Below, one piece after another: positions 34,206 through 48,224 of a stretch of 64,000 nucleotides of DNA. Within the stretch, counting starts at the first letter, position 1. Each line of letters opens with the position of its first letter. Source of the stretch: Sphingobium indicum B90A (GTDB taxonomy: Bacteria; Pseudomonadota; Alphaproteobacteria; Sphingomonadales; Sphingomonadaceae); contig NZ_CP013070.1 of assembly GCF_000264945.2 (NCBI RefSeq), positions 2,294,001-2,358,000 on the forward strand, in the 5' to 3' direction. The notes under the pieces are model-generated. The model saw only the letters and a list, made by a program, of their open reading frames with translations. It was not told the origin of the DNA and ran no database searches. The position numbers and the translations under genes are program-made.

Positions 34206-34242
34206 GCAGCGCTTTTGATGGATCGAAACCGTCATTGCCTCC

Positions 34243-35412
34243 CTAGGGCGCCTGGTTGGACAGGATCAGGGAGGCCGCCGACCAGAAAAGCCCGCCGACC
34301 CCCTGGACGAAGCTGAGTTTCATGTCGGGCACCTGCACCACGGCTTCGCCGCGCAACTGGCGCACGGCTTCCTGGATGGCGTACATCCCGTACATGCCGG
34401 AATGGGTGTAGGACATACCGCCGCCATTTGTGTTGATCGGCAGGCGGCCGCCCGGCCGCGTGTGCCCTTCGGCATGGAAGGCGCCGGATTCGCCGAAACC
34501 GACGAAGCCCGTATCCTCCAGCATGTAGAGCGGCAGGTGCGCGAACGCGTCGTAGAACATGGCATGGTCGATGTCGGCATGGGTGACGCCGGCCGTTTCG
34601 AACGCCTCCGCGCTGGCCCTGCGGAAGGAGCCGAAGGAGGTGAGGTCGTCCATCTGCGACACCAGCACGCTCTCGCAGGATTCCCCGGACCCCATCAGAT
34701 AGACGGCGCGCTTCGCGCTCGGCAGGTCGCGCGCCCGCTCCGCGCTGACGAGGACGAGCGCACCGCCGCCGTCGGTCACGACGCAGCACATGTCGCGGGT
34801 GAAGGGATAGGCCACGCGCGGTCCTGCCAGAACATCCTCGACCGTCACCGGCGTCCGGCGCTGGGCGCGTTCGTTGGGGATCGCCCATTCGCGCTGCGCC
34901 ACCACCACTTCGGCCAGGTCGCGCTGCCCCATGCCCCGCGCCTCCAGGAAGGCCAGCGCGGGCAGGGTGAACAGGGAATAGGGGGCGATGGCGCCATAGG
35001 GCTGCTCGAACTGCCCGTCCGGCCCCCTGGGGTTCATCGAATAGTTGGGCATGCCCACCCACGACCGGCCGGATTCGCCATGGGTGATCAGCACGACGCT
35101 CGCCTGACCCGTGGCGATCGCGGCGGCGGCGTGGCGGACATGGGCCATGAAGCTGCATCCGCCGATGGTCGTGCCGTCCATCCAGCGCGGGCGGATGCCC
35201 AGCATGGCGGCGACTTCGATGACCTGCGTCTCCGCCGTGGCGATGCCGTCCACGTCGGCGGGCGTCAGCCCGGCATCCTTCAGCGCCCGCCGGGCGGCGT
35301 CGGCATGCAACTGGATCATCGACATATCGGGAACGACGCCGACGCGTTCCGTCTCCGACGCGCCGACGATGGCGATATTGCCGCCATTGGGGGAAGATAG
35401 GGGCATGCTCAT
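34243..35412 (-). CDS. Thiolase-fold lipid-transfer-type enzyme (thiolase or retro-aldolase)
   Basis: The 389-residue protein has the SCP-x/Ltp thiolase layout: NIAIVGASETERVG, RRALKDAGLTPADVDGIATA, the active-site region TTIGGCSFMAHVRHAAAAIA, HAMFYDAFAHLPLYMLE and the closing INTNGGGMSYTHSGMYGMYA. Ltp2-type members paired with a DUF35 protein perform retro-aldol cleavage of 3-hydroxy-acyl-CoAs instead of thiolysis. Here the partner DUF35 gene is directly upstream and its stop overlaps this start (ATGA). It would release the shortened product of the P450/CoA pathway. IS6100 lies only 37 bases after the stop. Confidence 0.85.
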   Translation of the reverse strand: MSMPLSSPNGGNIAIVGASETERVGVVPDMSMIQLHADAARRALKDAGLTPADVDGIATAETQVIEVAAMLGIRPRWMDGTTIGGCSFMAHVRHAAAAIATGQASVVLITHGESGRSWVGMPNYSMNPRGPDGQFEQPYGAIAPYSLFTLPALAFLEARGMGQRDLAEVVVAQREWAIPNERAQRRTPVTVEDVLAGPRVAYPFTRDMCCVVTDGGGALVLVSAERARDLPSAKRAVYLMGSGESCESVLVSQMDDLTSFGSFRRASAEAFETAGVTHADIDHAMFYDAFAHLPLYMLEDTGFVGFGESGAFHAEGHTRPGGRLPINTNGGGMSYTHSGMYGMYAIQEAVRQLRGEAVVQVPDMKLSFVQGVGGLFWSAASLILSNQAP

Positions 35413-35819
35413 ATCCTGACGGGCTTGAAGACGGGCAGGAACTGGTCGCCGCGCGGTTCGAACGCGACCTGCAATTCCATCCCCAGCGGCAGATTGTCCG
35501 GTTCCGGTTCGACCCCGACGATATTGGTGCAGAGGCGCGGGCCTTCCTCCAGCGTCACCAGCGCGATGATCTGCGGGTCCTTGCTCTCGAATTCCGGCGA
35601 AGGGCGATAGTTGATGATGTAGGAGGCCAGCCGCGCCCGCCCCGACACCGGCTTCCATTCGACCTCGTCCGAATTGCATTTCGGGCAGAAGGGACGCGGA
35701 TAGAAATAGAAGCTTTCGCAACGGACGCAGCGCTGGATGCGCAACTCTCCTTCGGCCGCGCCCTGCCAGAAGGGCGCGGTTTCCGGGGTAGGTTCGGGAA
35801 TGGGCCCGATCGACATCAT
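35409..35819 (-). CDS. DUF35 OB-fold zinc-ribbon protein, thiolase/aldolase partner
   Basis: The 136-residue protein has a rubredoxin-like zinc ribbon with C31-x2-C34 and C45-x2-C48 (CVRCESFYFYPRPFCPKC) followed by an OB-fold (GRARLASYIINYRPSPEF, IIALVTLEEGPRLCTNIVGV). DUF35 proteins bind acyl-CoA and form complexes with thiolase-like or MaoC-like enzymes, as ChsH2 and Ltp2 partners do in steroid side-chain degradation. Coupled translation with the thiolase gene supports a complex. GGAG lies just before the start. Confidence 0.88.
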   Translation of the reverse strand: MMSIGPIPEPTPETAPFWQGAAEGELRIQRCVRCESFYFYPRPFCPKCNSDEVEWKPVSGRARLASYIINYRPSPEFESKDPQIIALVTLEEGPRLCTNIVGVEPEPDNLPLGMELQVAFEPRGDQFLPVFKPVRI

Positions 35820-35844
35820 GAATCTCCGTCAGTCATGGCCCGGT

Positions 35845-36759
35845 TCACATCTGCGAATCGAAATAGATGCTGGGCGCCAGCCCGTCCGCGAGCGGGCGGA
35901 ACTCCCTTTCCACCGTGGCGGCGAAGGTCGCTGCATCCAGATCGGCCATGCCGTTCAGGGTCTTGATCATCTCCGGCACATTGTAGAGCATCAGCTCGCC
36001 CCCCGCCGCGCCGATGGTCCGCCCGGACATCCAGCCCGATTGCTTCGAACCCAGGAACACCGCGATGGGCGCGACGCGGTCGGGCGTATAGGGGTCGTCC
36101 GCCCGCGCCGGGCCGTCCACATTCTTGTCTTCGGGCGCGGTTTCGGTGAGCCGCGTCGTCGCGCCCGGCGCGATGGCGTTGACCGTGACGCCGTAACGGG
36201 CAAGGCCGTTCGCCAGCGACATGGTCAGGCCGACGACGCCCATCTTGGCGGCGGCGTAATTGGGCTGGCCGGGCGACCCGTGCAGGCCCGAAGCGGAGGT
36301 GAAGTTGACGATCCGGAAATCGCCCTGCGGATTGCGCAGCGAACGCCAATAGGCGGCGGCGGGCTTGATGGTCGAATAATGCCCCTTCAGGTGGACGCGG
36401 ATGACCGCATCCCAATCCTTCTCGTCCAGGTTGAAGATCATCCGGTCGCGCAATATGCCCGCCACATTGACGACGATGTCCAGCCCGCCGAACTTCTCTA
36501 TGGCCAGGCCGACCAGCCGTTCGCCGGTCGCGACGTCGGCGATGTCGCCGCCGTCGGCAATGGCCTGCCCCCCGGCGGCGATGATGTCGCTGGCGACGGC
36601 GGCGGCCGGTCCCAGGTCGCTGCCTTCGCCCGTCGTGTCGCCGCCCAGGTCGTTGATGACGACCTTCGCGCCCTCCGCCGCGTAGCGCCGCGCTATCGCC
36701 GCCCCGATGCCGCGCCCGGCCCCGGTGATGATGGCGACCCGTCCTTCCAATGCACCCAT
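35845..36759 (-). CDS. SDR 3-hydroxyacyl-CoA dehydrogenase, MFE-2-like
   Basis: The 304-residue protein has the Rossmann motif TGAGRGIGAAIARRYAAEGA and the long insert NDLGGDTTGEGSDLGPAAAV typical of peroxisomal multifunctional enzyme type 2 dehydrogenase domains. NVAGILRDRMIFNLDEKDWD and the catalytic SGLHGSPGQPNYAAAK follow. Such domains oxidise 3-hydroxyacyl-CoAs. Its place between the CoA-transferase/MaoC genes and the thiolase supports a beta-oxidation-like step. Confidence 0.85.
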   Translation of the reverse strand: MGALEGRVAIITGAGRGIGAAIARRYAAEGAKVVINDLGGDTTGEGSDLGPAAAVASDIIAAGGQAIADGGDIADVATGERLVGLAIEKFGGLDIVVNVAGILRDRMIFNLDEKDWDAVIRVHLKGHYSTIKPAAAYWRSLRNPQGDFRIVNFTSASGLHGSPGQPNYAAAKMGVVGLTMSLANGLARYGVTVNAIAPGATTRLTETAPEDKNVDGPARADDPYTPDRVAPIAVFLGSKQSGWMSGRTIGAAGGELMLYNVPEMIKTLNGMADLDAATFAATVEREFRPLADGLAPSIYFDSQM

Positions 36760-36805
36760 GACATATCCTCGACTTGTTGCTTGTGGTTTCGTTGTTCCGC
36801 TTTCC

Positions 36806-38227
36806 TCAGGCCGCCGCCCGCCTGGGGGGCGCGTAGAGAAGCTGGATGTCGGTGAAGCCGTGCAGGCCCCATGGTCCGTTTTCGACGCCGATGCCGCTCG
36901 ACTTCAGCCCGCCGAAGGGCAGATGGGGTTGCAGGCCCATGGCATGGCCGTTGACCTGCACCTGCCCCGCCTCGATCCCCAGCCCGACATTGGCGGCGCG
37001 GATCGGGTCGGACGACCAGACCGACGCGGTCAGGCCGAACGGACCCGCATTGGCGCGGGCGACCGCATCGTCGACATCGCTGTAGGACAGGATCGGCAGC
37101 GCCGGGCCGAACTGCTCCTCGCTCACGATCCGCGCCCTTTCGTCCAGATCGGCGAGGATGGTCGGCTGGAAGAAGAAGCCGGGCCGGTCCATCGGCGCGC
37201 CGCCCGCCGCCACCCGCGCTCCCATGCCGATGGCTTCCGCGACCAGTTCCTTCACGCGCTCGAACTGCGGCCGGTTGCAGAGCGGCCCCAGCAGCGCGCC
37301 TTCCTCGTTCCAGGCGCCGACCGCCACGGAACGGGCGCGCTCCGCCAGCGCCTCGACCAGTTCGTCATGGCGGCTTTCATGGACATAGATGCGCTTGATC
37401 GCGACGCAGACCTGCCCATTATTGGCGAAGGCGCCCCAGAACAGCTCGTCCGCGATGGCGGATATGTCGGCATCGTCCAATATCACCGCCGGATCGTTGC
37501 CGCCCAGTTCCAGCGTCACCCGCTTCAGGTCGTTGGCCCCCGACGCCATCACCTTCCTGCCGGTCGCGGTCGACCCGGTGAAGGTCAGCTTGCGCGGTAT
37601 GGCATGGGCGGTCATCGCCGCGCCCAGCGGGTCCGGGCCGGAAATGACGTTCAGCACGCCGGGCGGCAGGACCGATTGCAGCGCCTGCCCGACCGCCAGC
37701 GTCGAAAGCGGCGTATAGGGCGATGGCTTCAGCACCAGCGTGTTCCCGGCGCGCAGGGCGGGCGCGATCTTCCAGAAGGCGAGGGCGATGGGATAATTCC
37801 ACGGCGTAATGCCCGCCACCACGCCCAGCGGCCTGCGGACGATTTCCGCATAGGCCGCCGCATCGTCCTGCACCACCTCCCGCGGCAGTTCGAGATCGGC
37901 ATAATAGCGGAGCCATTCCGCCGACGCCTCAAACTCTATGCCGGTGTCCGCCAGCGGCTTGCCCTGTTCCTGGGCCAGTGTCGGTCCCAGATCGGCGGCC
38001 ATCTCCATCACCAGCCCGGCGGCCTCCTTCAGCGCCCTGCGGCGCAACCCCTCGTCGCGGCTCCACGAAGCGAAGGCGTCCTGCGCGGTCGCCATCGCCT
38101 CCTCCAACTGTTCGGGGCTGGCGGCAGGGGCCTCGGCAAAGGCTTCGCCCGTCGATGGATCGATCACCGGGAAGGTGGCCCCTGTCCCGACGGATCGACC
38201 GTTGATGGTCATTGCGATGGCGTTCAC
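36806..38227 (-). CDS. NAD(P)-dependent aldehyde dehydrogenase
   Basis: The 473-residue ALDH has the cofactor motif FTGSTATGRKVMA, general base region VTLELGGNDPAVIL with the catalytic Glu, and nucleophile Cys in FANNGQVCVAIKRIYV. The closing QPHLPFGGLKSSGIGVENG is also present. It starts at a GTG with AAGGA upstream. In this operon it should oxidise the aldehyde produced by the alcohol dehydrogenase to a carboxylic acid before CoA activation. The substrate is unknown. Confidence 0.9.
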   Translation of the reverse strand: MNAIAMTINGRSVGTGATFPVIDPSTGEAFAEAPAASPEQLEEAMATAQDAFASWSRDEGLRRRALKEAAGLVMEMAADLGPTLAQEQGKPLADTGIEFEASAEWLRYYADLELPREVVQDDAAAYAEIVRRPLGVVAGITPWNYPIALAFWKIAPALRAGNTLVLKPSPYTPLSTLAVGQALQSVLPPGVLNVISGPDPLGAAMTAHAIPRKLTFTGSTATGRKVMASGANDLKRVTLELGGNDPAVILDDADISAIADELFWGAFANNGQVCVAIKRIYVHESRHDELVEALAERARSVAVGAWNEEGALLGPLCNRPQFERVKELVAEAIGMGARVAAGGAPMDRPGFFFQPTILADLDERARIVSEEQFGPALPILSYSDVDDAVARANAGPFGLTASVWSSDPIRAANVGLGIEAGQVQVNGHAMGLQPHLPFGGLKSSGIGVENGPWGLHGFTDIQLLYAPPRRAAA

Positions 38228-38261
38228 GGCTGTTTTTTTCCTTATGCTTGCGATCCGGGGC

Positions 38262-40568
38262 TCAACGATAGGCGTGCGGCAATATCTGCGGCATGGGTCC
38301 GCCGACCGCGACGGCGCGGCGTTCGATCAACTGGTCGATGGTCGCAGGATCGATCCCCGCATCCTCCAATATCCGGACGCTGTGCTCGCCGATCCCCGGC
38401 GGCTTCAGCACGCCGCGCCATTCGGTCCTGCTGAAGGATGCGATGCGGCCCGGCGTGGCGATGAAGCCGCCATTGTCGGAAGGATAGACATGGGCGAAGC
38501 CAGCCTCGCACAGCCGGGGATCGCGCAGCACCTCCGTCACCTTCCTGACGGATGCCGACGGCACGCCCGCCCGGTTGAGGCGGCGCGTCGCCTCCTCGCG
38601 GCTGAGATCGATGATGGCGGCCCCGATGGCGGCAATGGCCCCATCCTTGTCCGCCAGCTTTTCCTCAGGAATTTCCAGGGCGCTGGCGATCTTCGCCGGG
38701 GCGTCGGGCGCGGCGATCCGGACCCAGCCGTCCGCCGCCCGATACATGCGGTCGAACGCGCCGTCCCCCTGGAAGTCGACGCCGCCGACGATGGCGGGCG
38801 GGCGGCCTTCGAACCGGATGATCTCCGCCGACTGGAGGTAGGTTGCGGTGCCCAGCAGCGTGTCCCATGTCCGCTGGCCTTCCCCGGTGCGCAGCCGGTG
38901 GAACAGGGCAAGCGCGATGGTGAGCGAGGACATGGAGGCCGTGCTGATGTCGCAGACGGATATGGTGTTGACGATGGGTTCGCCGTCGCCGCCCTCCGCC
39001 GCCATCATCCCGGCCATGCCCTGCAACACCATGTCCACGCCGCCGCGCCCGCCCAGCGGGCCGGTCTGGCCGAAGGCGGAAAGCGACATGGTGACGATGC
39101 CGGGGTTGATCGCCTTAAGGGAATCATAGTCGATGCCCAGGCTTTTCGTCACGCCGGGCCTCAGGCCGTCGATGAAGACGTCCGCGCCCTCGATGATCTT
39201 GTGGAAGGCCCGGATGCTGTCGGGATGTTTCAGGTCGATGGCGATGCTGCGCATGCCCCGGTTCGCGCCATAGGCGGGCTTGCGGAAGGGGTCGCCCTCT
39301 CGCGGTTCCACCTTGATCACGTCCGCGCCCAGCGCCGAAAGCAGGCATCCGGCATAGGGGCTGGCGAGGAACGGCCCGCTGTTGACGACCCTGATGCCCG
39401 ACAGCGGGCCGGATCGCACGAGCGGGCGCGCATCGGCGGCCGGACGGGGCTGCGCGGGCCATGGCGCGACCTTGCCGCTATGCTCGCCAAGGGCAGGGGC
39501 GGGGCCGCGAACGGCGCCCGGCGTCGCGGTCAGGTTGATCGGGACGCCCGGCATGACGACAGGACCACGGTCGGGATCGTCAACCTCCACCCGCATGCCC
39601 ATGGCGGCGACCTGGGGATGGTCCAGCCACCCCTCGCGCCCGTCGATCGGTCCGGAGGGGATGCCGACGGCGTCGAGGCGGTCCAGCCAATATTGGCGGG
39701 GCTGCTTCAGCACCGCTTCCTCGACCGCCTTCTGCACCCAGCCGATATTCTCCGGCGCGACCATGTTCGCCAGGCTGCCGCCCAGCCGCTCATCCTCGAC
39801 AATCGAACCTAGCCCGATCACCTCCATGAACATCGCCTCGAACCGGGGACCGAGCGCGCCGCTGGTGAACCATTTGCCGTCGCCCGCGATCATCCGGGAA
39901 TAGGTCGGATGGCGGCCCGCGCCCCCCACGGCGGTGCTGGGGTCCGGCGCGTTGGGATCGACCACCAGCGATATCATGGTAAGCTGCTGAAGCGCGTTGA
40001 TGCCGGACACGGTGACGCGCTGCCCGAAACCCGAACCCTCGCGCTCGATCAAGGCCGCCACCGCGCAGACCGACGCCCACAGGCCATGCGCATAGAGCAA
40101 AGTCTGATAGACGGACTCGACCGGCTCCCCCGATACGGAGGACTGGCGGGCGAACTGGCCGCCATAGGCCCCCAGCAGCGCGGCGGATTCGACCCCGCCC
40201 GCCCAGGGGACATGGCCGGGCAGATAGACGGGCATCTCCAGCAGGATCAGCCGGGGATGGCTGGCCAGCAGTTCGTCGCCGTCCAGCCCGAAGGCCGCCA
40301 GTTCCTCGCCGTCCCTGGTGATCAGCATGTCGGCCCCGCCGATCCGGTTCCGCAGCCATGCGCGCCCCTCGGCCGATCCGGGATCGATCACCACGCTGCG
40401 CTTGCCGCGATTCCACATCGGAAAGCCGGGACGGCCGCGTTCCGGGTCGCCGTCCGGCGTCTCGACCTTCACCACGTCGGCGCCGAAGTCGGCGCAGAAC
40501 ATGCCGACTATGGGGCCGGCGACGCCGGTCGCGAGTTCGATCACCCGAATATCGCCAAGAGCATCCAT
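38262..40568 (-). CDS. Double-domain CaiB/BaiF family III CoA-transferase
   Basis: At 768 residues this is twice the usual size. The first CaiB domain (about 1-370) starts LGDIRVIELATGVAGPIVGM and the second (about 400-768) starts LSGIRVVNSGPFLASPYAGC, a tandem duplication and fusion. Family III enzymes use an Asp in the motif GQxVD. The first domain has Thr there (GQRVTVS, T186) and the second Trp followed by Asp (GQRTWDT, W568-D569). Either catalysis uses D569 or the chemistry is unusual. It should place CoA on the acid made by the aldehyde dehydrogenase. Confidence 0.88.
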   Translation of the reverse strand: MDALGDIRVIELATGVAGPIVGMFCADFGADVVKVETPDGDPERGRPGFPMWNRGKRSVVIDPGSAEGRAWLRNRIGGADMLITRDGEELAAFGLDGDELLASHPRLILLEMPVYLPGHVPWAGGVESAALLGAYGGQFARQSSVSGEPVESVYQTLLYAHGLWASVCAVAALIEREGSGFGQRVTVSGINALQQLTMISLVVDPNAPDPSTAVGGAGRHPTYSRMIAGDGKWFTSGALGPRFEAMFMEVIGLGSIVEDERLGGSLANMVAPENIGWVQKAVEEAVLKQPRQYWLDRLDAVGIPSGPIDGREGWLDHPQVAAMGMRVEVDDPDRGPVVMPGVPINLTATPGAVRGPAPALGEHSGKVAPWPAQPRPAADARPLVRSGPLSGIRVVNSGPFLASPYAGCLLSALGADVIKVEPREGDPFRKPAYGANRGMRSIAIDLKHPDSIRAFHKIIEGADVFIDGLRPGVTKSLGIDYDSLKAINPGIVTMSLSAFGQTGPLGGRGGVDMVLQGMAGMMAAEGGDGEPIVNTISVCDISTASMSSLTIALALFHRLRTGEGQRTWDTLLGTATYLQSAEIIRFEGRPPAIVGGVDFQGDGAFDRMYRAADGWVRIAAPDAPAKIASALEIPEEKLADKDGAIAAIGAAIIDLSREEATRRLNRAGVPSASVRKVTEVLRDPRLCEAGFAHVYPSDNGGFIATPGRIASFSRTEWRGVLKPPGIGEHSVRILEDAGIDPATIDQLIERRAVAVGGPMPQILPHAYR

Positions 40569-40612
40569 TGGTCGTCAAAGCTCCCGAAAAATTATCGTTC
40601 TTGCGGCCATGG

Positions 40613-41041
40613 TCAGGCGCGGGACGGAACCGCCACGATGGCGCGCCCCGGCGAAGTGCCCTTGCCGTCCTGATTTTCCACGTCGATCTGAAGGTGGATG
40701 AGGGCCGCGCCGTCATCCGCGACGGACTTTTCCACGACCACCGCCCTGGTCGACAATATGTCGTTCTTCTGGTTGATGGCGCGGAACTGCATGGCCAGTT
40801 CCCTGATCTCGCTCTCGTCGCCCGCCCAGTCGCGCAGGGCGTTCAGCATATAGGCCCAGCGCAGATTGCCCATGCCGAACGCGCCCGGCTGTCCCGCCGC
40901 CTGTCCCGCCTCATCGTCCATATGGACATAGACGAACTCCTCGTTCACCGCGGCGAAGCGGCTCCATTCCATCATGGTCGTCTTGCGGGTGAAGGCCGGA
41001 ATCTGGTCGCCCACGGCGATGTCTTCGAAGAAAATGGACAA
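40613..41041 (-). CDS. MaoC-like hot-dog protein (enoyl-CoA hydratase subunit)
   Basis: The 142-residue hot-dog-fold protein has the MaoC pattern (FEDIAVGDQIPAFTRKTTMM, EWSRFAAVNEEFVYVHMDDE, AFGMGNLRWAYMLNALRDW). Length and pairing with the adjacent 168-residue MaoC protein suggest a heteromeric hydratase like ChsH1/ChsH2 or HTD2-type pairs. The catalytic Asp/His pair of R-hydratases is not obvious in this subunit; HMDDE may provide it. It lies 10 bases downstream of its partner. Confidence 0.75.
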   Translation of the reverse strand: MSIFFEDIAVGDQIPAFTRKTTMMEWSRFAAVNEEFVYVHMDDEAGQAAGQPGAFGMGNLRWAYMLNALRDWAGDESEIRELAMQFRAINQKNDILSTRAVVVEKSVADDGAALIHLQIDVENQDGKGTSPGRAIVAVPSRA

Positions 41042-41051
41042 GGCGAAGCTC

Positions 41052-41558
41052 CTAATAATGAATGAGGGTCATGACGCGGGACTTCACCCATTCGCCGCGC
41101 TGGTTCGTCCATTCGGTCTCGTTATAGGTGTAGAGCGTCAGGCCGTTGCGGCCCTCCCGCTCCTCCCAATGGGTCAGGCGGGAACGGCTGGAGATGACGT
41201 CGCCCGGCCGCATGCGCGCCCCGAACCTGTCGACCTGGCCGCCGTTCAGGATATTGTCGCCCTTCTTCGTTTCCTGGCCGGGGATCGCGCCCTGAAGCCG
41301 CAATTCCTCCTCGGTCAGTTCGCGGGGCAACTGCCAGGCGAAGGGGTTGAAATCCTCCGGCGCGACGATCCCGCCCCAGCGGGTCGTCCGGGCATATTCC
41401 TCGTCCCAGAAGAGACGCGGCGGCATCTGCCCCCAATAGGTCGCTATCGCCCAGCGGCGTATGTCGGTGGCCGTGATCGGAAAGCTGGTCTCGAACGAAT
41501 GCCAGACGCCTTTCGACGCCTCCATCTGCGGCGTGACGAGGGTGGTCGCCTCTTCCAT
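41052..41558 (-). CDS. MaoC N-terminal-type dehydratase subunit
   Basis: The 168-residue protein starts MEEATTLVTPQMEAS with GGGAGG at good spacing, so the ATG at 41558 is preferred over one at 41573. The hot-dog pattern of the FAS1_DH/MaoC_N family is visible in FPITATDIRRWAIATYWGQM, GIVAPEDFNPFAWQL and MRPGDVISSRSRLTHWEERE. With the next gene it likely forms an enoyl-CoA hydratase acting before the SDR dehydrogenase. Confidence 0.78.
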   Translation of the reverse strand: MEEATTLVTPQMEASKGVWHSFETSFPITATDIRRWAIATYWGQMPPRLFWDEEYARTTRWGGIVAPEDFNPFAWQLPRELTEEELRLQGAIPGQETKKGDNILNGGQVDRFGARMRPGDVISSRSRLTHWEEREGRNGLTLYTYNETEWTNQRGEWVKSRVMTLIHY

Positions 41559-41578
41559 GGTCGGTCCTCCCATCGGTC

Positions 41579-42811
41579 CTAGAGCGCCACCGGCAGCCGG
41601 GCGATGCCGTTGATGCTCGCATGGCTCTTGAACTGGATGTCGGCCGGATCGGTCGCCAGCCGCACGTTCGGAATGCGCCGCAGCAGCGTTTCGAACACGA
41701 TCTGCAATTCGATGCGGGCCAGCGCCTGACCGATGCACTGGTGCACGCCATAGCCGAAGGCGACATGGTCGCGCGGGCGGCGGCGTATGTCGAACTTCGC
41801 CGCATCCGGGAAATGCCCGTCGTCGCGGTTCGCCGCGAAGTTGAGCGGGATGATCCCTTCGCCCGCAGGGATCGTCACCCCGCCAATCTCTATATCCTCC
41901 GTCGCGATGCGCAGGATGATGAGGTGCACGACCGTCAGATAGCGCAGCAGTTCCTCTATGGCGTCCGGGATCAGGGCCGGTTCCGCCTGAAGCTGCGCCA
42001 GTTGATCCGGATGCTCCAGCAGCGTCAGCATGCCCAGGCCGATCATGTTCGCGGTCGTGTCATGACCCGCGACCAGCAGCAGCCATGCGGTGTTCAGCAC
42101 GTCCCGCCGCTCGATCTGGCCCTCCCGGCTGGCGCGCACCAGGTCGCCCAATATGTCGTCGCCCGGATCGTCCAGCTTCTCCCGCTCGGCGATCAGCCGG
42201 TCGACATAGTCGTTGATGTTCGCATAGGCCTCCGTGGCGCGCTCTATGGCTTCCTCCGTCCCCAGGCTGGCGGCCAGCAGCGCCTCCGTCTCCCGGTTGA
42301 AGAAGGGATGGTCCGACGGCGGCACGCCCAGCAGCCAGGCGATCACCGTGGAGGGGACGGGCAGGGCGATCTCCTCCACGAAATCGAACGGCTCCGAACG
42401 ATCGATGATATGGTCGATATGCTCGTCGACCAGCGCCTGGATGCGCGGCCGCATGACCTCCAGCTTCTTCACGATGAAATGCTTGGAGATGAGCCGCCGG
42501 AACAGCGTGTGGCGCGGCGCGTCCATGTTGAGGAAGGTGCTTTCCTCCTCGCTGGGGCGCGGCAACAGTTCGATCTGGGGGAAGCCGGGCAGATTCTGGT
42601 TCGAACTGACCCTGGGATCGGCCAGGATGCTCCGGACGTCGTTATAGCGGGTGACGAGCCAGGCCGGCGTGCCGTCGTGCAGGACGACGCGCCGGACCGG
42701 CTCGTGCTCGCGCAGCCAGGCATAGGCCGGCGGCGGATCATAAGTGCCGCGCTCCCAGGGGAAGGTGGTTTCGGGAACGGGCTTTTCCTGGATTTGGGTC
42801 TCTGTCGTCAC
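41579..42811 (-). CDS. Bacterial cytochrome P450 (class I)
   Basis: The 410-residue soluble P450 has the oxygen-activating I-helix LLLVAGHDTTANMIG, the ExxR motif in EELLRYLTVVH, and the heme loop HVAFGYGVHQCIGQALARIE with the proximal Cys at about 359. The family is close to the actinobacterial/sphingomonad CYP107/CYP105-like clan; no exact CYP family is assigned. A [3Fe-4S] ferredoxin gene lies two genes upstream as electron donor. The alcohol dehydrogenase between them suggests the P450 makes a primary or allylic alcohol. Confidence 0.92.
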   Translation of the reverse strand: MTTETQIQEKPVPETTFPWERGTYDPPPAYAWLREHEPVRRVVLHDGTPAWLVTRYNDVRSILADPRVSSNQNLPGFPQIELLPRPSEEESTFLNMDAPRHTLFRRLISKHFIVKKLEVMRPRIQALVDEHIDHIIDRSEPFDFVEEIALPVPSTVIAWLLGVPPSDHPFFNRETEALLAASLGTEEAIERATEAYANINDYVDRLIAEREKLDDPGDDILGDLVRASREGQIERRDVLNTAWLLLVAGHDTTANMIGLGMLTLLEHPDQLAQLQAEPALIPDAIEELLRYLTVVHLIILRIATEDIEIGGVTIPAGEGIIPLNFAANRDDGHFPDAAKFDIRRRPRDHVAFGYGVHQCIGQALARIELQIVFETLLRRIPNVRLATDPADIQFKSHASINGIARLPVAL

Positions 42812-42854
42812 TGGCTCGTGCCTTCTTCGTAGTGGGTGTCAGCGGTTCGTCGCG

Positions 42855-43955
42855 TCATCGGCCCGGCAGCAGGACCGGCTTGATGACCGAACCGGATGCA
42901 AGGTCGCGCTCGGCATCGTTGATCTTCTCCAGCGGATATCGGGCGATCAGCCGGTCGAAGGGAAAAAGCCCCTCCGACCAGAGTTCGATCAGTTGCGGGA
43001 TCAGCAATTGGGGCACCGAATTGCCCTCGATGATGAAGGAAATTTGCTGCCCCTTCATCAGCGCCTCCTGCGGCAGGTCCAGCGGCGCGCCGCCGCCGCC
43101 CACCAGCCCCAGCTTCCCCCGCGCGCGCAGGGCCGCCAGGGCGCCGGCGATGACGGCGGGCGCGGCGGTCGTGTCCAGCGCATGGGTCGCGCCGCCCCCG
43201 GTGATGGACATGATCTGCTCGACCAGTTCGGGATCGCGGCCGGAGATGCGATGCGTCGCCCCCAGTTCCTGCGCGAGTTGCAGGCGGTTTTCGTGCAGGT
43301 CGACCGCGATCACCTTCCGCGCCCCGGCGATGCGCGCCGCCATGATCGCCGCCATGCCGACCGCGCCTGTCCCGAATATGACGACGCTGCTGTCGAAACG
43401 GACCTGCAGGGCGTTGAGGACAGCGCCCGCCCCGGTCTGGATGCCGCAGCCCAGCGGCCCCAGCAATTCTATGGGCAGGTCCGGCGACACCTTGACCGCA
43501 TTGCGCTCGGTCGCCAGCGAATGGGTGGCGAAGGACGACTGGCCGAACCAGCGCGTCTGCAATTCGACCCCGTCCGAATCCCGGCCCGACCGATGCGATC
43601 CGGGCCGCAGCCCCAGTTCGTTCCGCTCGCTGAATTCGGAGCAGAAGGATGGCGTGCCGCCATGGCAATTGTCGCACCAGCCGCATGAATCATAGGTCAG
43701 GACCACATGGTCCCCGACGGCGAAGCGCGTGACGGAGGGGCCGACCGCCTCGACGATGCCGGATCCTTCATGGCCCAGCACGGCGGGCAGGGGCGCCCAT
43801 TCGGCGGGGATATGCCTGACCACCAGGTCGGTGTGGCACATGCCGACACCGGCGACGCGGACGAGGATCTCGTTCCCGCCGGGTTCGGGCAGGTCCAATG
43901 GCTCGATGGCGAAAGGGGCTTGCGCATGGCGCAGGATCGCGGCGCTGGCGTGCAT
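42855..43955 (-). CDS. Zinc-dependent NAD alcohol dehydrogenase (class III/aryl-alcohol type)
   Basis: The 366-residue medium-chain dehydrogenase has the catalytic zinc site (GVGMCHTDLVVRH, LGHEGSGIVEAVG) and four structural-zinc cysteines (SCGWCDNCHGGTPSFC). The NAD loop is IFGTGAVGMAAIMAARIAGA. Similar enzymes oxidise benzyl, perillyl or geranyl alcohols. It would convert the P450 product to an aldehyde. It follows the ferredoxin gene by 42 bases and precedes the P450 gene by 43. Confidence 0.9.
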   Translation of the reverse strand: MHASAAILRHAQAPFAIEPLDLPEPGGNEILVRVAGVGMCHTDLVVRHIPAEWAPLPAVLGHEGSGIVEAVGPSVTRFAVGDHVVLTYDSCGWCDNCHGGTPSFCSEFSERNELGLRPGSHRSGRDSDGVELQTRWFGQSSFATHSLATERNAVKVSPDLPIELLGPLGCGIQTGAGAVLNALQVRFDSSVVIFGTGAVGMAAIMAARIAGARKVIAVDLHENRLQLAQELGATHRISGRDPELVEQIMSITGGGATHALDTTAAPAVIAGALAALRARGKLGLVGGGGAPLDLPQEALMKGQQISFIIEGNSVPQLLIPQLIELWSEGLFPFDRLIARYPLEKINDAERDLASGSVIKPVLLPGR

Positions 43956-43997
43956 GTCTTCGACACTCCTCCTGGAAGCGGAAAGCGGACCTGGAGG

Positions 43998-44213
43998 TCA
44001 GGCCTTCGGGGTCGCCGAAAGTCGGATCGCCGCCGCCGGGCAGACATTGGCGGAGGATCGGACCGCGGCTACGCTGGCTTCGTCGCCATCGTCCACCGTG
44101 TCGCGCAGCAGGAGGACGACGCCATCATCGTCCTGATCGAAAACCCCGGGCGCCAGCATCACGCATTGGCCCGACGAAACGCACCTCTCCGGCAAGGTTT
44201 TTACTTGCATCAT
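43998..44213 (-). CDS. P450-type [3Fe-4S] ferredoxin
   Basis: The 71-residue protein has C11-x5-C17 (RCVSSGQCVM) and C58-Pro (SSANVCPAAAI), the three-cysteine pattern of [3Fe-4S] ferredoxins that donate electrons to bacterial P450s. It is the first gene of the leftward operon. No ferredoxin reductase is encoded in the operon, so a reductase from elsewhere must serve. Two adjacent ATG codons (44213, 44210) are possible starts. Confidence 0.88.
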   Translation of the reverse strand: MMQVKTLPERCVSSGQCVMLAPGVFDQDDDGVVLLLRDTVDDGDEASVAAVRSSANVCPAAAIRLSATPKA

Positions 44214-44619
44214 CCACGCCTTGTTTTTTGTTATTTATGGCCGAATAGAATCGACAATGAACAAGCTAAATCTTCAAATTTTAAAATAAAGAATAATAAT
44301 TATCACCTATTGTCTCTTCAGTTCCGGAGGATTTGCAAAGTTGGCGCATATGCCCGGCGTGATACGCCCTGTCTTTGGTTATGACCTGTAACTTTCGCCA
44401 TGGATGTTCGCTGGACGCCGAAGCCAATTTGCCGGTCGGCGCGCCGCGACATCGACAGGGCCATGGCGATCTGATATGCGGTTGAATCCACGCTTGGCCG
44501 ATGGTCGGCAACAGATCGAACGCGCTTGGAGGACAGCAAACGCCCCAGCGCCGCCGAATGCCGGAACAGGGCCCAAGCGCCATAAGGCCGAGCGCCAAAA
44601 GAAAATGTCGGGAGAGGAG
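44214..44619. promoter_or_regulatory. Divergent promoter region of the P450 operon and tetR
   Basis: This 406-base region contains no convincing gene. The part next to the ferredoxin gene (about 44215-44330) is strongly AT-rich, with CAAATTTTAAAATAAAG and AATAATAATTAT tracts, in contrast to the GC-rich remainder. It should hold the operon promoter and the operator for the divergent TetR regulator; no single clear operator was found. Confidence 0.5.
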
Positions 44620-45294
44620 ATGACCCAGATAAGAGCCTTCCCCATGAGCGAGTCCCCTGTCATCCCGTTGCGGGAGCGTCGCCGGCAGGAAACGATGAAC
44701 GAGATTCTCGATCTGTCGATCGAGGTCATAAGGCAGCAAGGCGTCGCCGGACTGAATCTCACGACGGTGGCGCGGCTTCTGGGCGTGCAGCCGACCGCGC
44801 TGTACAAATATTTCCCGTCCTTGATGGCGGTCTATGACGCGCTCTACCGCCGCGCCGAAAACGATGTCCTGCATGAAGTCGAAAATGCCGTCGCGAGCGC
44901 CGAACCAGGCATGGCGGCGATAAGGGACGCGATGCTGGCCGTGGACCGATGGGCGACGGTGAACCCGGAAATGGCCCAGCTGCTCATCGGCCGGCCGATC
45001 CCCGGCTATATTCCCGCTCCCGACGCGCTGGACCCCAGCATCCGGATATTGGGCATTTTCCGCCAGTCGCTGGACCAGGCCGTGGCGCGGCGGCAACTGG
45101 ACGCCGGCGCGGCCGGATCGCGGCATGTGCTGATGCTGGCCGCGCTGCTGACCGGGGCCTCCACCCTTCGGATGCTGCACGCCGAAGAACCGCCCTGCCA
45201 GGCGGATATGGAGGGGTTGATTCCCGATCTGGTCAGCATGTTCTTCAGGGCGTTCCCGCCCCAGGACGCGCCCGTCCCCGCCACCGACCTCTGA
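44620..45294 (+). CDS. TetR-family regulator of the P450 operon
   Basis: Taking the ATG at 44620 (GGGAGAGGAG just upstream) gives 224 residues. The helix-turn-helix lies at about 35-60 (LTTVARLLGVQPTALYKYFPS), followed by a ligand domain with AIRDAMLAVDRWATVNPEMA. The reading frame is open further upstream but those codons are not protein-like; MSESPVIPLRERR at 44644 is another possible start. Divergent placement makes it the probable repressor of the ferredoxin-P450-CoA operon, responding to a pathway substrate or acyl-CoA. Confidence 0.85.
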   Translation: MTQIRAFPMSESPVIPLRERRRQETMNEILDLSIEVIRQQGVAGLNLTTVARLLGVQPTALYKYFPSLMAVYDALYRRAENDVLHEVENAVASAEPGMAAIRDAMLAVDRWATVNPEMAQLLIGRPIPGYIPAPDALDPSIRILGIFRQSLDQAVARRQLDAGAAGSRHVLMLAALLTGASTLRMLHAEEPPCQADMEGLIPDLVSMFFRAFPPQDAPVPATDL

Positions 45295-45733
45295 TCCGTC
45301 GCATTCCCTTTCCGCCGGGTCCGTCGAGGACCGATAGCCGCCCGCGCAGCGCTGCGGTTCGGCCTGGACAGGACGAGCTATAAGGCGGGGGCGCCGGCCT
45401 GCCCGCGCCATTCCCATGCCGTCGGGAGCCGGCGGCGGCAGTCGTCATCCTTGAAAATATTATGGTTGCAATTTTAAACCATAGGCGGCACTATCCGCAT
45501 GGTTGCAAAATTAAACCGTAACGAGGCGCCGGGCGCGCCTGGTCGAAAGAAGCGGCCATGCCGTCCTGGAGTAGGGTGTCGGATGATCGATTTGCGCGGA
45601 CAAGCACGTCAGCCATGGCCCGGCCCCTTCGGATCGTCCGCGCCCGGCTCCCTTGCGGAGAGAGCCGAACGACAGGGATGAAGTCCCGCGACCCTCGCCC
45701 CCTTTCCTCAGCCAGCATTGCCAGGAGTTGCCA
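45295..45733. other. 439-bp intergenic region upstream of the Old Yellow Enzyme gene
   Basis: No convincing gene is seen. It contains the paired operator-like dyads at 45462-45519 and GCCAGCATTGCCAGGAGTTG just before the nemA-like start. A 60-codon frame starting inside the second dyad (45499) has no ribosome site and low-complexity composition. Confidence 0.5.
45462..45519. promoter_or_regulatory. Tandem dyad operators upstream of the ene-reductase gene
   Basis: ATGGTT-GCAATTTTA-AACCAT (45462-45482) and ATGGTT-GCAAAATTA-AACCGT (45499-45519) are two near-identical 21-base dyads, 37 bases apart centre to centre. They lie in an AT-rich patch 215-270 bases before the ATG of the ene-reductase gene. 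Two copies on nearly the same helix face are typical of cooperative regulator binding. The regulator is unknown; the nearby MarR protein is a candidate. Confidence 0.6.
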
Positions 45734-46849
45734 ATGACCCAATCCGCCTTGTTCCAGCCGCTCAGGATCGGTCGGCTCGAACTGTCCCACCGCGTGGTGA
45801 TGGCTCCGCTGACGCGGATGCGCGCCGGTCCGGGCATGGTGCCGCGCGACATCGCCGTCGAATATTATCGCCAGCGGGCGACGCCGGGCGGCCTCATCGT
45901 CGCGGAAGCATCCCAGGTGATGCCGACCGGCCAGGGCTATCCGCAAACCCCCGGCATCCATACGGCGGAACAGATCGCCGGCTGGAAAAGGGTCACCGAC
46001 GCGGTGCATGAAGCGGGTGGCCACATCTTCCTCCAGCTCTGGCATGTGGGGCGCATTTCCCATTCATCCTACCATGGCGAAACGCCGGTCGCGCCGTCCG
46101 CCGTCGCCGCCGCGGGCGATCATTTCACCGCGAGCTGGAAGCTGGAGCCGTTCCAGACGCCCCGCGCCCTTGAGCTTGAGGACATCGCCGCGATCGTCGA
46201 GGCCTATCGCACCGGCGCCCGCAACGCGCTCGCCGCAGGATTCGACGGGGTCGAGATCCATGGCGCGAACGGCTATCTGATCGAGCAGTTCCTCCAGTCC
46301 CGCTCCAACAGGCGGCAGGATATTTACGGCGGATCGATCGCGAACCGCACCCGCTTCCTGCTCGACGTCACGCGCGCCGTGGTGGAGGAGGCGGGGGCCG
46401 ACCGCGTCGCCGTGCGCCTGTCGCCCTTCGGCACCACCAACGATTCCGGCGAGGACGATCCGCTGCCGCTGTACCGGCATGCGATCGCCGCGCTTTCCGG
46501 CTTCCAACTGGCCTATCTGCACCTGATCGAACCGCGGATAGCCGGGACCGGCAAGGCGGACGTCCTCAATGATAGCGCGCCCTCCGCCGCTGAACTCTTC
46601 CGCGACTCCTGGCCCGGCGTCCTGATCGCCGCCGGCGGTTATGAGGGGGCTTCCGCCCAGGAGGAAGTGGGCAAGGGGCTGGCGGACGCGATCGCCTTTG
46701 GGCGTCCGTTCATCGCCAATCCCGACCTGGTCGAACGAATCCGCCTGGGCGCTCCGCTCAACCCCTGGGACCGTCCGACCTTCTACGGCGGCGATGCCAA
46801 GGGCTATACCGATTATCCGACGCTGGAAACGCTGAACGCAGCGGCCTGA
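45734..46849 (+). CDS. nemA: Old Yellow Enzyme-family flavin ene-reductase, NemA-like
   Basis: The 371-residue FMN TIM-barrel starts MTQSALFQPLRIGRLELSHR with CAGGAG upstream. Family motifs are VVMAPLTRMRAGPGMVP, FLQLWHVGRISHSSY, GFDGVEIHGANGYLIEQF, LQSRSNRRQDIYGGS and a phosphate site near LIAAGGYEG and AIAFGRPFIANPDLV. Such enzymes reduce quinones, maleimides, nitro-compounds and enones with NADPH. It stands at the head of the quinone-related gene group. Tandem dyads upstream suggest tight control. Confidence 0.88.
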   Translation: MTQSALFQPLRIGRLELSHRVVMAPLTRMRAGPGMVPRDIAVEYYRQRATPGGLIVAEASQVMPTGQGYPQTPGIHTAEQIAGWKRVTDAVHEAGGHIFLQLWHVGRISHSSYHGETPVAPSAVAAAGDHFTASWKLEPFQTPRALELEDIAAIVEAYRTGARNALAAGFDGVEIHGANGYLIEQFLQSRSNRRQDIYGGSIANRTRFLLDVTRAVVEEAGADRVAVRLSPFGTTNDSGEDDPLPLYRHAIAALSGFQLAYLHLIEPRIAGTGKADVLNDSAPSAAELFRDSWPGVLIAAGGYEGASAQEEVGKGLADAIAFGRPFIANPDLVERIRLGAPLNPWDRPTFYGGDAKGYTDYPTLETLNAAA

Positions 46850-46863
46850 ACGAAGGTCGGACC

Positions 46864-46892
46864 GGGCCGCCTTCGCCCGCGGAAGGCGGCCC
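46864..46892 (+). terminator. Hairpin after the ene-reductase gene
   Basis: GGGCCGCCTTC (46864-46874), loop GCCCGCG and GAAGGCGGCCC (46882-46892) form a perfect 11-bp stem in the 82 bases between the nemA-like and DUF1330 genes. Only CCTTG follows, so it may be an attenuating stem or an mRNA 3' end stabiliser rather than a strong intrinsic terminator. Confidence 0.55.
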
Positions 46893-46931
46893 CCTTGAAG
46901 AGACGTCAGAGAATTCGGGAAGGATGCAGGA

Positions 46932-47219
46932 ATGGCGGTCTACACAGTGGCTCAGGTCAAGATCAACGACGGCGAGAGATATGAGAAATATCGGGAGCGC
47001 TTCGGCGCGGTGCTCCAGCAATATGATGGCCGGCTCGTCGCCGCCGACGACAATCCGGTCGTCCAGGAAGGCCAATGGTCTTATGAGAAGATCGTGATCC
47101 TGGAATTCGCCGATCTGGACGCCTTCAACGCGTTCGCCGACAGCGAAAGCTATCGCGAGATCGCGGCCCATCGCCATGCCGGGGCGGACAGCCTTATCCT
47201 CGTCGCGAAAGGACGCTGA
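46932..47219 (+). CDS. DUF1330 family protein
   Basis: The 95-residue protein begins MAVYTVAQVKINDGERYEKY and shows the ferredoxin-like dimeric alpha-beta barrel pattern of DUF1330 (GRLVAADDNPVVQEGQWSYE, then KIVILEFADLDAFNAFADSE). These small proteins often accompany oxidoreductases, and some related folds are monooxygenases or decyclases. No catalytic role is established. GGAAGGATGCAGGA precedes the start. Confidence 0.82.
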   Translation: MAVYTVAQVKINDGERYEKYRERFGAVLQQYDGRLVAADDNPVVQEGQWSYEKIVILEFADLDAFNAFADSESYREIAAHRHAGADSLILVAKGR

Positions 47220-47277
47220 ACCGGCGCGCAGGCGCTCCATCCGGGGGAAAACGCCGGCGGAATCCCTATTGCGACCC

Positions 47278-47299
47278 CCGGCCGGCACCGTACGGCCGG
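47278..47299. terminator. Hairpin after the DUF1330 gene
   Basis: CCGGCCG (47278-47284), GCACCGTA loop and CGGCCGG (47293-47299) form a short GC-rich stem between the DUF1330 and MarR genes. There is no clear T tract. Confidence 0.4.
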
Positions 47300-47364
47300 C
47301 TTCCCCGGCGCGGCAATGCGCCTGGGGGGTCGACAGGCGTGCGCCATAAGTGTATGCTCACACA

Positions 47365-47853
47365 ATGAGCGCGCTACGACCCATCGCCTTCCTGGAGGAA
47401 GTCAGGAACACGCCCCACATCTGCCTCGCGGAAGGTCTGCGGGCGGCCAATCGCGCCGTCATGAAGCATTATGTCGACAGCATGGCGGGATCGCCGGTCA
47501 ATCCGGTGCAGATGTCGCTGCTCATGCGCGTCTATTATCTGCGCAACGCGACCATGCAGACGCTTGCCCAGCATATGGAGACCGATCGCACCACGACGAC
47601 GCGCAACGTCGATGTGCTGGTGCGGGACGGATTCCTGGAGATCGGGGAGGGCAAGGACAGGCGCCAGCGGCTGGTGCGCTTGACGGAGCGCGGGCATGAG
47701 GCGCTGGAGGTGTCGATCCCCAAATGGCGCAAGGCCCAGGATGAGCTGAAAAATGCGCTGGGCGACGAATTGTGGAACAATATCCTGCGCGAAGCCCGGA
47801 CGTTGATCGAGCTTGGCGGCATCGCCTGCGATCGCACTGCCCAAGCGGCCTGA
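47365..47853 (+). CDS. MarR-family transcriptional regulator
   Basis: The 162-residue winged-helix protein contains the recognition region TMQTLAQHMETDRTTTTRNV, the wing VRDGFLEIGEGKDRRQRLVR and LTERGHEALEVSIPKWRKAQ, all standard MarR features. A GTG at 47350 is an alternative start; neither start has a good ribosome site, and the mRNA might be nearly leaderless. MarR proteins with this neighbourhood (quinone reductases, glutathionyl-hydroquinone reductase) often sense quinones or phenolics, so it may control this block. Confidence 0.85.
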   Translation: MSALRPIAFLEEVRNTPHICLAEGLRAANRAVMKHYVDSMAGSPVNPVQMSLLMRVYYLRNATMQTLAQHMETDRTTTTRNVDVLVRDGFLEIGEGKDRRQRLVRLTERGHEALEVSIPKWRKAQDELKNALGDELWNNILREARTLIELGGIACDRTAQAA

Positions 47854-48224
47854 GGCATTCCCGACCGATCGGGCCGACATGGCCACCGCGCATGCGTTCG
47901 GGCGGCGCCGCAATGCCGCGGCCTGTCTACATCCAGAAAATGGATAAGGGGTTTTCATAATCCGCGCTTGAAAGCGGGGGCGCCACATCCTTTGTGGTTC
48001 CGCATAATATGCGCGTGGAGAGAGAGAGAATGGCCTCATCGTCCGTCCTGCCGGAATCCTGTGGCCCTGTCGTCCTTCCTCGTTCTGACGGATTTCGATC
48101 CCATGACGCGCCGGCGCAGCATCCCGGATGCGCGGGATGAGCGCCGTCTCTCGCCGATCATGCGCGAACCTGCCCGGCATCATGCGAAGCGGATCGGCCG
48201 GGCCGAAGATGGAGATACCGATAT
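47854..48224. other. 371-bp intergenic region, nothing clear
   Basis: No convincing gene is present: an overlapping frame at 47968-48438 is rich in rare turns of codon use and overlaps the glutathionyl-hydroquinone reductase start. GTGGAGAGAGAGAGAATGG near 48020 looks like a ribosome site but opens only a short arginine-rich frame. The promoter for the next gene should lie here. Confidence 0.4.

What the first reader, a model, noticed from the sequence alone, without database searches (positions are those of the whole stretch)
34243..44213. Possible new P450-initiated, CoA-dependent degradation pathway
Ten leftward genes form a logical route: P450 plus ferredoxin hydroxylate, alcohol and aldehyde dehydrogenases oxidise to an acid, a double CaiB enzyme adds CoA, MaoC pair hydrates, SDR oxidises, and thiolase/DUF35 cleaves. 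No acyl-CoA dehydrogenase is present, which fits a substrate that already has the needed double bond (such as an acyclic or monocyclic terpenoid) or a retro-aldol cleavage as in sterol side-chain loss. I know no described pathway with this exact set.
Basis: partly seen in the sequence, partly recalled or inferred. Interest (0 to 1): 0.72.

Follow-up and report, generated by a model that had tools for sequence, protein, structure and literature searches.

The report
Travelling P450 and aldolase degradation operon
A ten-gene set in a Sphingobium soil bacterium, found letter for letter on pesticide-degradation plasmids of other bacteria, looks built to oxidise one end of an oily branched molecule and cut off a small piece, probably with an aldolase that databases call a thiolase; its real substrate is not known.

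Summary
The ten leftward genes are real, intact and operon-like (34243-44213). The block 34206-54592 is over 99.8% identical to conjugative lin (lindane) plasmids pISP0 and pMI1; S. chlorophenolicum keeps the ten-gene order at 88-96% nucleotide identity with dN/dS 0.10. Those three copies also have a TonB receptor gene next, lost in the window at an IS6100 end.

Named relatives are mostly actinobacterial. [quoted passage not shown]

New point: the 'thiolase' lacks the thiolase nucleophile (Gly85, as in the bile-acid aldolase Sal) and has YDAF instead of HDCF. I therefore favour terminal-methyl oxidation, CoA transfer, hydration, then retro-aldol cleavage, on an isoprenoid-like substrate.

Not shown: substrate, expression, any activity. 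The SDR, best matched by MFE-2 (3R)-hydroxyacyl-CoA dehydrogenase, argues for ordinary thiolysis, and four of five opened Microbacteriaceae relatives of the 'thiolase' sit in other gene sets, so rivals stay open. No paper in my search listings describes the cluster. New variant of a known kind.

The parts
43998..44213 (-). 71-aa ferredoxin, first gene; C-x5-C spacing with Ser in the middle and a later CP suggests a [3Fe-4S] type (motif rule recalled)
   Evidence: ORF, Pfam Fer4_15/Fer4_19/Fer4_13
42855..43955 (-). zinc-type MDR alcohol dehydrogenase
   Evidence: Pfam ADH_N + ADH_zinc_N; 22 NCBIfam matches, none at its cut-off
41579..42811 (-). cytochrome P450, CYP105-like, GTG start; AGHDTTAN and FGYGVHQCIG motifs present (read by eye)
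   Evidence: Pfam p450; 44.4% to 2z36 and 40.4% to P450-SU1 3cv8
41052..41558 (-). MaoC-type protein 1 (FAS1_DH_region); likely partner subunit of the hydratase
   Evidence: Pfam PF13452; no PDB sequence match at 0.001
40613..41041 (-). MaoC-type protein 2, HadB-like; keeps the active-site His, Asp replaced by Glu
   Evidence: Pfam PF01575, barely over cut-off; alignment to HadB
38262..40568 (-). double-domain class III CoA-transferase (CaiB/BaiF); C-domain keeps Asp540, N-domain has Leu158 at that place
   Evidence: two PF02515 stretches; alignments
36806..38227 (-). aldehyde dehydrogenase, GTG start
   Evidence: Pfam Aldedh 3.5e-140
35845..36759 (-). SDR, best PDB match 2et6, a (3R)-hydroxyacyl-CoA dehydrogenase (yeast MFE-2, recalled)
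35409..35819 (-). DUF35 protein (ChsH2-type zinc ribbon + OB fold), presumed partner of the next gene
   Evidence: Pfam zf-ChsH2 and OB_ChsH2_C
34243..35412 (-). thiolase-superfamily protein annotated thiolase, predicted aldolase: Gly85 for the nucleophilic Cys, Y287-D-A-F, His337 (start 35412 or 35406)
44644..45294 (+). divergent TetR-family regulator (start uncertain, between 44404 and 44644)
   Evidence: annotated TetR/AcrR in L041 and L042; 88% in L005
45734..46849 (+). alkene reductase (old yellow enzyme type), in the same mobile block; not found in L005
33351..34151 (+). IS6100 transposase; element end at 34205 borders the operon
   Evidence: 100% to annotated IS6100; junction
29894..30694 (-). 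second IS6100 transposase, same 266-aa product, opposite orientation
34206..54592 (.). block near-identical to lin plasmids pISP0 (99.87%) and pMI1 (99.995%, to 54568)

Best explanation
A mobile catabolic operon, probably actinobacterial in origin, that shortens a hydrophobic methyl-branched (isoprenoid-like) substrate. Steps, all inferred from families: ferredoxin + P450 hydroxylate a terminal methyl; ADH and ALDH oxidise it to the acid; the double CaiB transfers CoA; the MaoC pair adds water to an alpha,beta-unsaturated (2-methyl-2-enoyl) CoA ester; the DUF35/thiolase-like complex cleaves the resulting beta-hydroxyacyl-CoA by a retro-aldol reaction to propionyl-CoA (or acetyl-CoA) and an aldehyde that ALDH oxidises again. 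Tyr287 would be the base, as in Ltp2 and Sal, and His337, at the place of the Ltp2 acid Tyr344, the acid. The SDR is the step I place least well: it may oxidise a hydroxyl elsewhere in the route. Shown here: gene content, order, conservation, mobility, active-site residues by alignment. Not shown: substrate, expression, complex formation, catalysis.
For: Intact operon under purifying selection. Exact copies on two conjugative lin plasmids and a diverged copy on an S. chlorophenolicum contig, each with TonB receptor DNA next. Aldolase: thiolase Cys aligns to Gly85, HDCF His to Tyr287; G85, Y287, A289 and H337 are invariant in all 19 sequences aligned, the window's and 18 of the 120 listed homologues, 70-98% identical to it; after 4u4e (itself named thiolase), 6ok1 (Ltp2) and 9myr (which I take to be Sal) outrank every other thiolase in PDB; a 17-row tree splits it, with Ltp2, Sal and others, from two thiolases, 96/93. 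Sal paper PMC12329534, passages: Gly at the Cys place means no thiolysis, and DUF35 partner. Isoprenoid: Salinibacterium (L125) and Embleya (L043) carry Thl 69-71%, DUF35 60-61%, SDR 64-65%, ADH 47-50%, ALDH 58-59% with P450s 63% alike, the L125 one best matched by CYP268A2, CYP125MRCA and CYP124; CYP124 acts on methyl-branched isoprenoid tails (PMC7589583 passages). P450 and CaiB2 hits of Sphingopyxis chilensis and Mycolicibacterium sp. are on contigs of equal length.
Against: The MFE-2-like SDR is conserved with the core (64-65%) and would be the expected partner of a true thiolase. Cys86, one residue from the nucleophile place, is invariant in the same 19 sequences, though 4u4e has Ser and a Rhodococcus relative Ala there. 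The window P450 is CYP105-like, not CYP124/268-like. No MaoC homologue is found in L125 or L043 by tblastn at 1e-4, so hydration may not belong to the core route. Of five Microbacteriaceae loci opened for their Thl (65-76%), only L125 has P450, ADH and ALDH homologues of this kind; L122-L124 have DUF35-Thl beside genes that look like ACAD and ETF (by eye), L126 has neither. Amycolatopsis-type L119 has CaiB2 54%, Thl 68% with luciferase-like monooxygenases and two ACADs. The tree has long branches and a midpoint root. No structure could be predicted.
Confidence: 0.45

Rival explanations
1. Same front end, but a classical finish: MaoC hydrates, the MFE-2-like SDR oxidises to a 3-oxo-2-methylacyl-CoA, and the DUF35/Thl complex thiolyses it to propionyl-CoA plus a shortened acyl-CoA, with Cys86 or another residue taking the nucleophile's part.
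For: SDR best matches a (3R)-hydroxyacyl-CoA dehydrogenase at 2.3e-80, the stereochemical partner of a MaoC hydratase (recalled); SDR conserved with Thl in L043 and L125; Cys86 invariant in the 19 close sequences; His337 kept as in thiolases.
Against: Gly at the nucleophile place, Tyr for the HDCF His, no HDCF Cys; nearest characterised relatives in PDB are aldolases.
Confidence: 0.3
2. The substrate is a saturated branched or alicyclic compound (solvent, fuel or pesticide component at HCH dump sites) and an ACAD from elsewhere in the genome supplies the double bond.
For: 13 ACAD-domain matches elsewhere in the genome; two ACADs right after the Thl homologue in L119 and one some 5 kb from it in L043; ACAD-like genes by eye in L122-L124; spread on lin plasmids.
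Against: The four ten-gene copies and L125 have no ACAD in the stretches searched.
Confidence: 0.25
3. An igr-like sterol or bile-acid side-chain module (P450, MaoC pair, DUF35, aldolase).
For: Same family set as P450 + ChsH1/ChsH2 + Ltp2 (operon content recalled).
Against: P450 is CYP105-like, no ChsE1/E2-type ACAD, MaoC and DUF35 not fused, added ADH/ALDH/CaiB front end; MaoC1 has no PDB sequence match and MaoC2 only HadB-type and other MaoC entries.
Confidence: 0.08
4. A modifying or detoxifying set (CYP105s are known from secondary metabolism, recalled) carried as a passenger on the lin plasmids, without growth value.
For: Best PDB matches are compactin, pentalenic acid and vitamin D3 hydroxylases.
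Against: Complete CoA-dependent set with a C-C cleaving protein and TonB receptor, under purifying selection.
Confidence: 0.07

Closest known systems
Shy/Sal and ChsH1-ChsH2/Ltp2 steroid side-chain hydratase-aldolase systems
   Same: MaoC hydratase, DUF35 partner, thiolase-fold aldolase with a YDxF/Y base; Sal has Gly for the nucleophilic Cys (PMC12329534 passages and outline)
   Different: Here DUF35 is a separate gene, the acid place has His337 (Sal Gln352, Ltp2 Tyr344), the motif is YDAF (Sal YDCY, Ltp2 YDHF), no ACAD in the operon, other P450 family
Actinobacterial clusters in Embleya sp. NBC_00888 (L043) and Salinibacterium (L125)
   Same: Homologous ADH, ALDH, SDR, DUF35, Thl (47-71%) with P450 and ferredoxin
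   Different: P450s 29-31% alike, of CYP268/124/125 type where tested (L125); a ferredoxin reductase gene; no MaoC homologue found; CaiB2 found in Embleya only
CYP105 P450 + small ferredoxin pairs of Streptomyces (pairing recalled; e.g. P450-SU1)
   Same: P450 40-44% identical, ferredoxin in the same operon
   Different: In a catabolic CoA operon of an alphaproteobacterium
Terpenoid routes starting with a P450 (linalool CYP111, terpineol CYP108; recalled, reviews seen in a listing only)
   Same: P450, ADH, ALDH logic of allylic methyl oxidation
   Different: Other P450 family; here CoA transfer and cleavage genes are in the same operon
Peroxisomal branched-chain beta-oxidation (MFE-2 + SCPx; recalled)
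   Same: MaoC hydratase + MFE-2-type dehydrogenase + SCPx-type fold for 2-methyl-acyl-CoA
   Different: The cleaving protein here lacks the thiolase Cys

Membership tests
SCP-2 / canonical thiolase | nucleophilic Cys at the N-terminal CxS place | tested here: not met
   Gly85 in the MAFFT alignment with 6esq and a LinJ-like thiolase (L106); Cys86 one place on
SCP-2 / canonical thiolase | HDCF motif | tested here: not met
   YDAF
SCP-2 / canonical thiolase | catalytic His of the GH motif | tested here: met
   His337
Ltp2/Sal aldolases | Gly in place of the nucleophilic Cys | tested here: met
   stated for CtSal in PMC12329534
Ltp2/Sal aldolases | Tyr base in a YDxF/Y motif | tested here: met
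   Y287-D-A-F in 19 of 19 aligned sequences, window included
Ltp2/Sal aldolases | known catalytic acid (Ltp2 Tyr344 or Sal Cys304) | tested here: not met
   His337 and Ala289 at these places
Ltp2/Sal aldolases | DUF35 partner | tested here: met
   adjacent gene with ChsH2-type Pfam domains; the complex itself not tested
Ltp2/Sal aldolases | phylogenetic grouping | tested here: inconclusive
   15 rows split from two thiolases at 96/93, but long branches, midpoint root and 17 rows only
Ltp2/Sal aldolases | retro-aldol activity on a steroid | not testable with these tools
   needs enzyme assay
igr-type sterol operon | CYP125-type P450 and ChsE1/E2 ACAD | tested here: not met
   CYP105-like; no ACAD in cluster
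CYP105 | at least 40% identity to members (rule recalled) | tested here: met
   44.4% to 2z36, 40.4% to 3cv8; membership of these in CYP105 recalled; no official name given
class III CoA-transferase | CaiB family with catalytic Asp | tested here: met
   PF02515 in two stretches, Asp540 in the C-domain, Leu158 at that place in the N-domain
MaoC / hydratase 2 | Asp/His pair | tested here: inconclusive
   His kept, Asp replaced by Glu in MaoC2

The most novel reading that the evidence does not exclude
The operon encodes an undescribed way to eat isoprenoid-like chains: P450 oxidation of the terminal methyl, CoA transfer, hydration, and retro-aldol release of propionyl-CoA by a third active-site type (Tyr/His, YDAF) of DUF35-dependent acyl-CoA aldolase that databases file as thiolase, with exchangeable P450s, and it now travels on lindane-degradation plasmids.
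Probability: 0.3. Interest if true: 0.68.

Novelty: new variant of a known kind. Interest (0 to 1): 0.5.

Why it matters
If right, a large set of proteins filed as thiolases would deserve a check for aldolase residues (7886 of 8000 scored candidates match this one at 1e-40; their residues and neighbours were not examined beyond the 18 aligned), and steroid-type retro-aldol cleavage would extend to non-steroid catabolism. It also shows a second, apparently unrelated catabolic cargo moving with the lin genes, whose substrate can be tested in culturable strains (MM-1, MI1205).

Tried and rejected
Tried: NCBIfam for a named pathway: no listed match reaches its cut-off (for ALDH, SDR and Thl only the best 25 are listed). 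Family-wide search for the CaiB2: 1 of 298 genomes at 1e-80, its own; genus: 21 of 94 at 1e-60, but only 3 of 94 (own, G1355, G1327) at 97% or more, the next at 38%. Class of the Nonomuraea genome: 2 of 394 at 1e-130; both opened with one Sphingobium locus: L108 has CaiB2 38% and Thl 59%, L109 and L107 share only distant homologues. Family of the Saccharopolyspora genome: 1 of 259 at 1e-140. P450: 5 of 401 in the family of the Nocardia genome and 12 of 297 in that of the Streptomyces genome at 1e-110; I opened loci of 7 of these 17 genomes: no CaiB2, MaoC, DUF35 or Thl homologue at 1e-6, but an ALDH homologue of 40-42% in five and the ADH and ferredoxin in one. Thl: 5 of 239 genomes in the family of the Microbacterium genome at 1e-150, five of the six matches opened. 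TetR operator: no perfect inverted repeat with arms of 7 or more and loop up to 8. Promoter/terminator scan: 4 promoter-like sites against 1.7 expected, 5 terminator-like against 5.8. Papers: 0 occurrences of P450 in the main text of PMC7350273, PMC4289293, PMC10653915, PMC5351058, PMC4478539, PMC3656210; one unrelated mention in PMC6771000.

Considered and rejected: sterol module (see rivals); function in HCH breakdown (no dehalogenase family among the ten); chance assembly by IS6100 (order conserved in S. chlorophenolicum; I did not look for IS6100 there).
Full report
WHAT IS THERE. Pfam gives the expected family for every one; no listed NCBIfam match reaches its cut-off, so no named pathway fits. 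Eight junctions measure 10-46 bp and one overlaps by 4 bp, or leaves 2 bp if the thiolase-like gene starts at 35406 as annotated on pISP0. A TetR-type gene is divergent upstream. MaoC1 begins at 41558, not at the ORF start inside the P450 gene.

WHERE IT LIVES. The window is part of contig C1 (at least 3.56 Mb of a 3,945,731-bp genome, so taken as the chromosome). Its genus also holds G1355, whose match has the same place as pMI1 of Sphingobium sp. MI1205, and G1327, whose match has the same place as S. chlorophenolicum contig 57; so it is a Sphingobium. The size equals the sum that I recall for S. indicum B90A; this was not tested. The block 34206-54592 matches pISP0 of Sphingomonas sp. MM-1 at 99.87% over 20,387 columns and pMI1 at 99.995% over 20,363; the operon plus 87 bp is 100.0% over 10,058 on both (2 of 9 matching plasmid records cover 80% or more). 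Both plasmids are typed conjugative. pISP0 carries linF and linGHIJ (PMC4289293 passages; linF also in PMC3656210 passages) and pMI1 carries linB, linC, linF, linEb, linRED, linGHIJ (PMC4824263, whole text). So the operon moved very recently between genera, on or with lin plasmids.

A FOLLOWING GENE. On pISP0 and pMI1 the thiolase-like gene is followed after 82 bp by a TonB-dependent receptor gene in the same direction; in S. chlorophenolicum DNA homology runs to the end of that gene. In the window the shared DNA stops at 34206, where an IS6100 copy ends, about 45 bp before that gene would start. A TonB-receptor-like C-terminal piece at 29438-29821 is only 28% identical to it, so I take it for another gene's remnant. 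Whether the genome has the receptor elsewhere was not searched.

CONSERVATION. Against S. chlorophenolicum the ten genes are 88-96% identical in DNA, with dN/dS 0.06-0.30 per gene (highest MaoC2) and 0.10 over all. I read this as function kept.

RELATIVES. Of the P450 hits with an organism name among the 120 listed (5808 passed), those I read are actinobacterial except Sphingopyxis chilensis; a 46% relative also stands on a Paraburkholderia plasmid, and weak ones in a Myxococcales and a Verrucomicrobiales bin. Of 11 named CaiB2 hits among the 120 listed (771 passed), 8 are actinobacterial. P450 and CaiB2 hits share a longest contig of equal length in four cases (3,952,559; 516,894; 22,074; 14,110), which suggests but does not prove linkage. 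The 35 other P450 loci from the genome scan (34-50% in most) show no CaiB2, MaoC, DUF35 or Thl homologue in their flanks at 1e-8, S. chlorophenolicum apart. Embleya L043 and Salinibacterium L125 (its Thl is identical to P0285, named Salinibacterium) hold ADH, ALDH, SDR, DUF35, Thl homologues with a P450, a ferredoxin and a ferredoxin reductase. These two P450s are 63% alike and 29% like the window's; Embleya has a second P450 (31%) some 13 kb off. The L125 one best matches CYP268A2, then CYP125MRCA, CYP124A1 and CYP125. [quoted passage not shown] for CYP268A2 I saw only a reference-list entry and a table row, its isoprenoid activity is recalled. Thus the front-end P450 seems exchangeable and the core is ADH, ALDH, SDR, DUF35, Thl. 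Against a tight link, four of five opened Microbacteriaceae loci have the Thl without that set, and L119 has it with luciferase-like monooxygenases and ACADs.

THE CLEAVING ENZYME. In an alignment of 17 sequences the nucleophilic Cys of two thiolases falls on Gly85; the HDCF His is Tyr287 and its Cys is Ala289; the GH-motif His is kept as His337, which falls on Ltp2 Tyr344 and on the Gln that I take for Sal Gln352. Gly85, Cys86, Tyr287, Ala289, His337 are invariant in 19 of 19 sequences, the window's and 18 that I chose from the 120 listed. In PDB the order is 4u4e (named thiolase; I saw no activity for it), 6ok1, 9myr, then other thiolases. By my count 6ok1 numbering gives Tyr294 and Tyr344 of TcLtp2, and 9myr has the CtSal motif YDCY, as described in PMC12329534 (passages and outline). 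That paper says that CtSal, with Gly at the Cys place, cannot thiolyse. I therefore predict a retro-aldolase with a Tyr/His pair. Against this: Cys86, the conserved MFE-2-like SDR, and no experiment or model.

MECHANISM. Inferred order: P450 oxidation of a terminal methyl, ADH, ALDH, CaiB2 CoA transfer (Asp only in the C-domain), MaoC hydration (MaoC2 keeps His, has Glu for Asp), C-C cleavage by DUF35/Thl. A substrate ending in an isopropylidene group gives a 2-methyl-2-enoyl-CoA directly and needs no ACAD; this is chemistry from general knowledge. But ACADs exist elsewhere in the genome (13 matches), so absence from the operon is weak evidence.

LITERATURE. The listings of searches (open-licence PMC only) showed no paper that describes this cluster; of the papers on strains with the plasmids I saw passages or, for PMC4824263, the whole text. 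The B90A genome paper is not held.

VERDICT. The substrate remains unknown.

Noticed in passing
L041 22934-30304 (pISP0) and L042, not in the window's shared block: Convergent cluster next to the operon's TonB gene: SSADH-like ALDH, HSL-type esterase, SDR, 659-aa Baeyer-Villiger-type monooxygenase (best PDB OTEMO), MDR-ADH, SDR, TonB receptor; looks like a cyclic ketone/lactone route.
   Followed up: partly
window 29438-34206: Two IS6100 copies in opposite orientation enclose a piece of an outer-membrane efflux gene, a bactofilin-like and a tyrosine-recombinase-like ORF (names by eye); a TonB-receptor-like C-terminal remnant lies outside.
   Followed up: partly
L119 3808-15826 (contig length as for Amycolatopsis sp. 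GM8): CaiB2 54%, DUF35 54%, Thl 68% with two luciferase-like monooxygenases, a PF13452 protein and two ACADs: another oxygenase front end for the same cleaving module.
   Followed up: partly
L049/L076 (Streptantibioticus cattleyicolor megaplasmid): ADH 51% - P450 59% - ferredoxin 41% as a three-gene module without CoA-gene homologues in the stretch fetched.
   Followed up: no
L050 9408-16346 (Paraburkholderia sp. PREW-6R plasmid): P450 46% and ferredoxin 37% behind two single CaiB-like ORFs (27-30%) and before an ALDH (35%): a looser proteobacterial parallel.
   Followed up: no
window 44214-44547: AT-rich stretch between TetR and ferredoxin genes; a motif AAATAAAGAATAATA has a reverse-complement counterpart before the S. 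chlorophenolicum operon (seen by eye).
   Followed up: no
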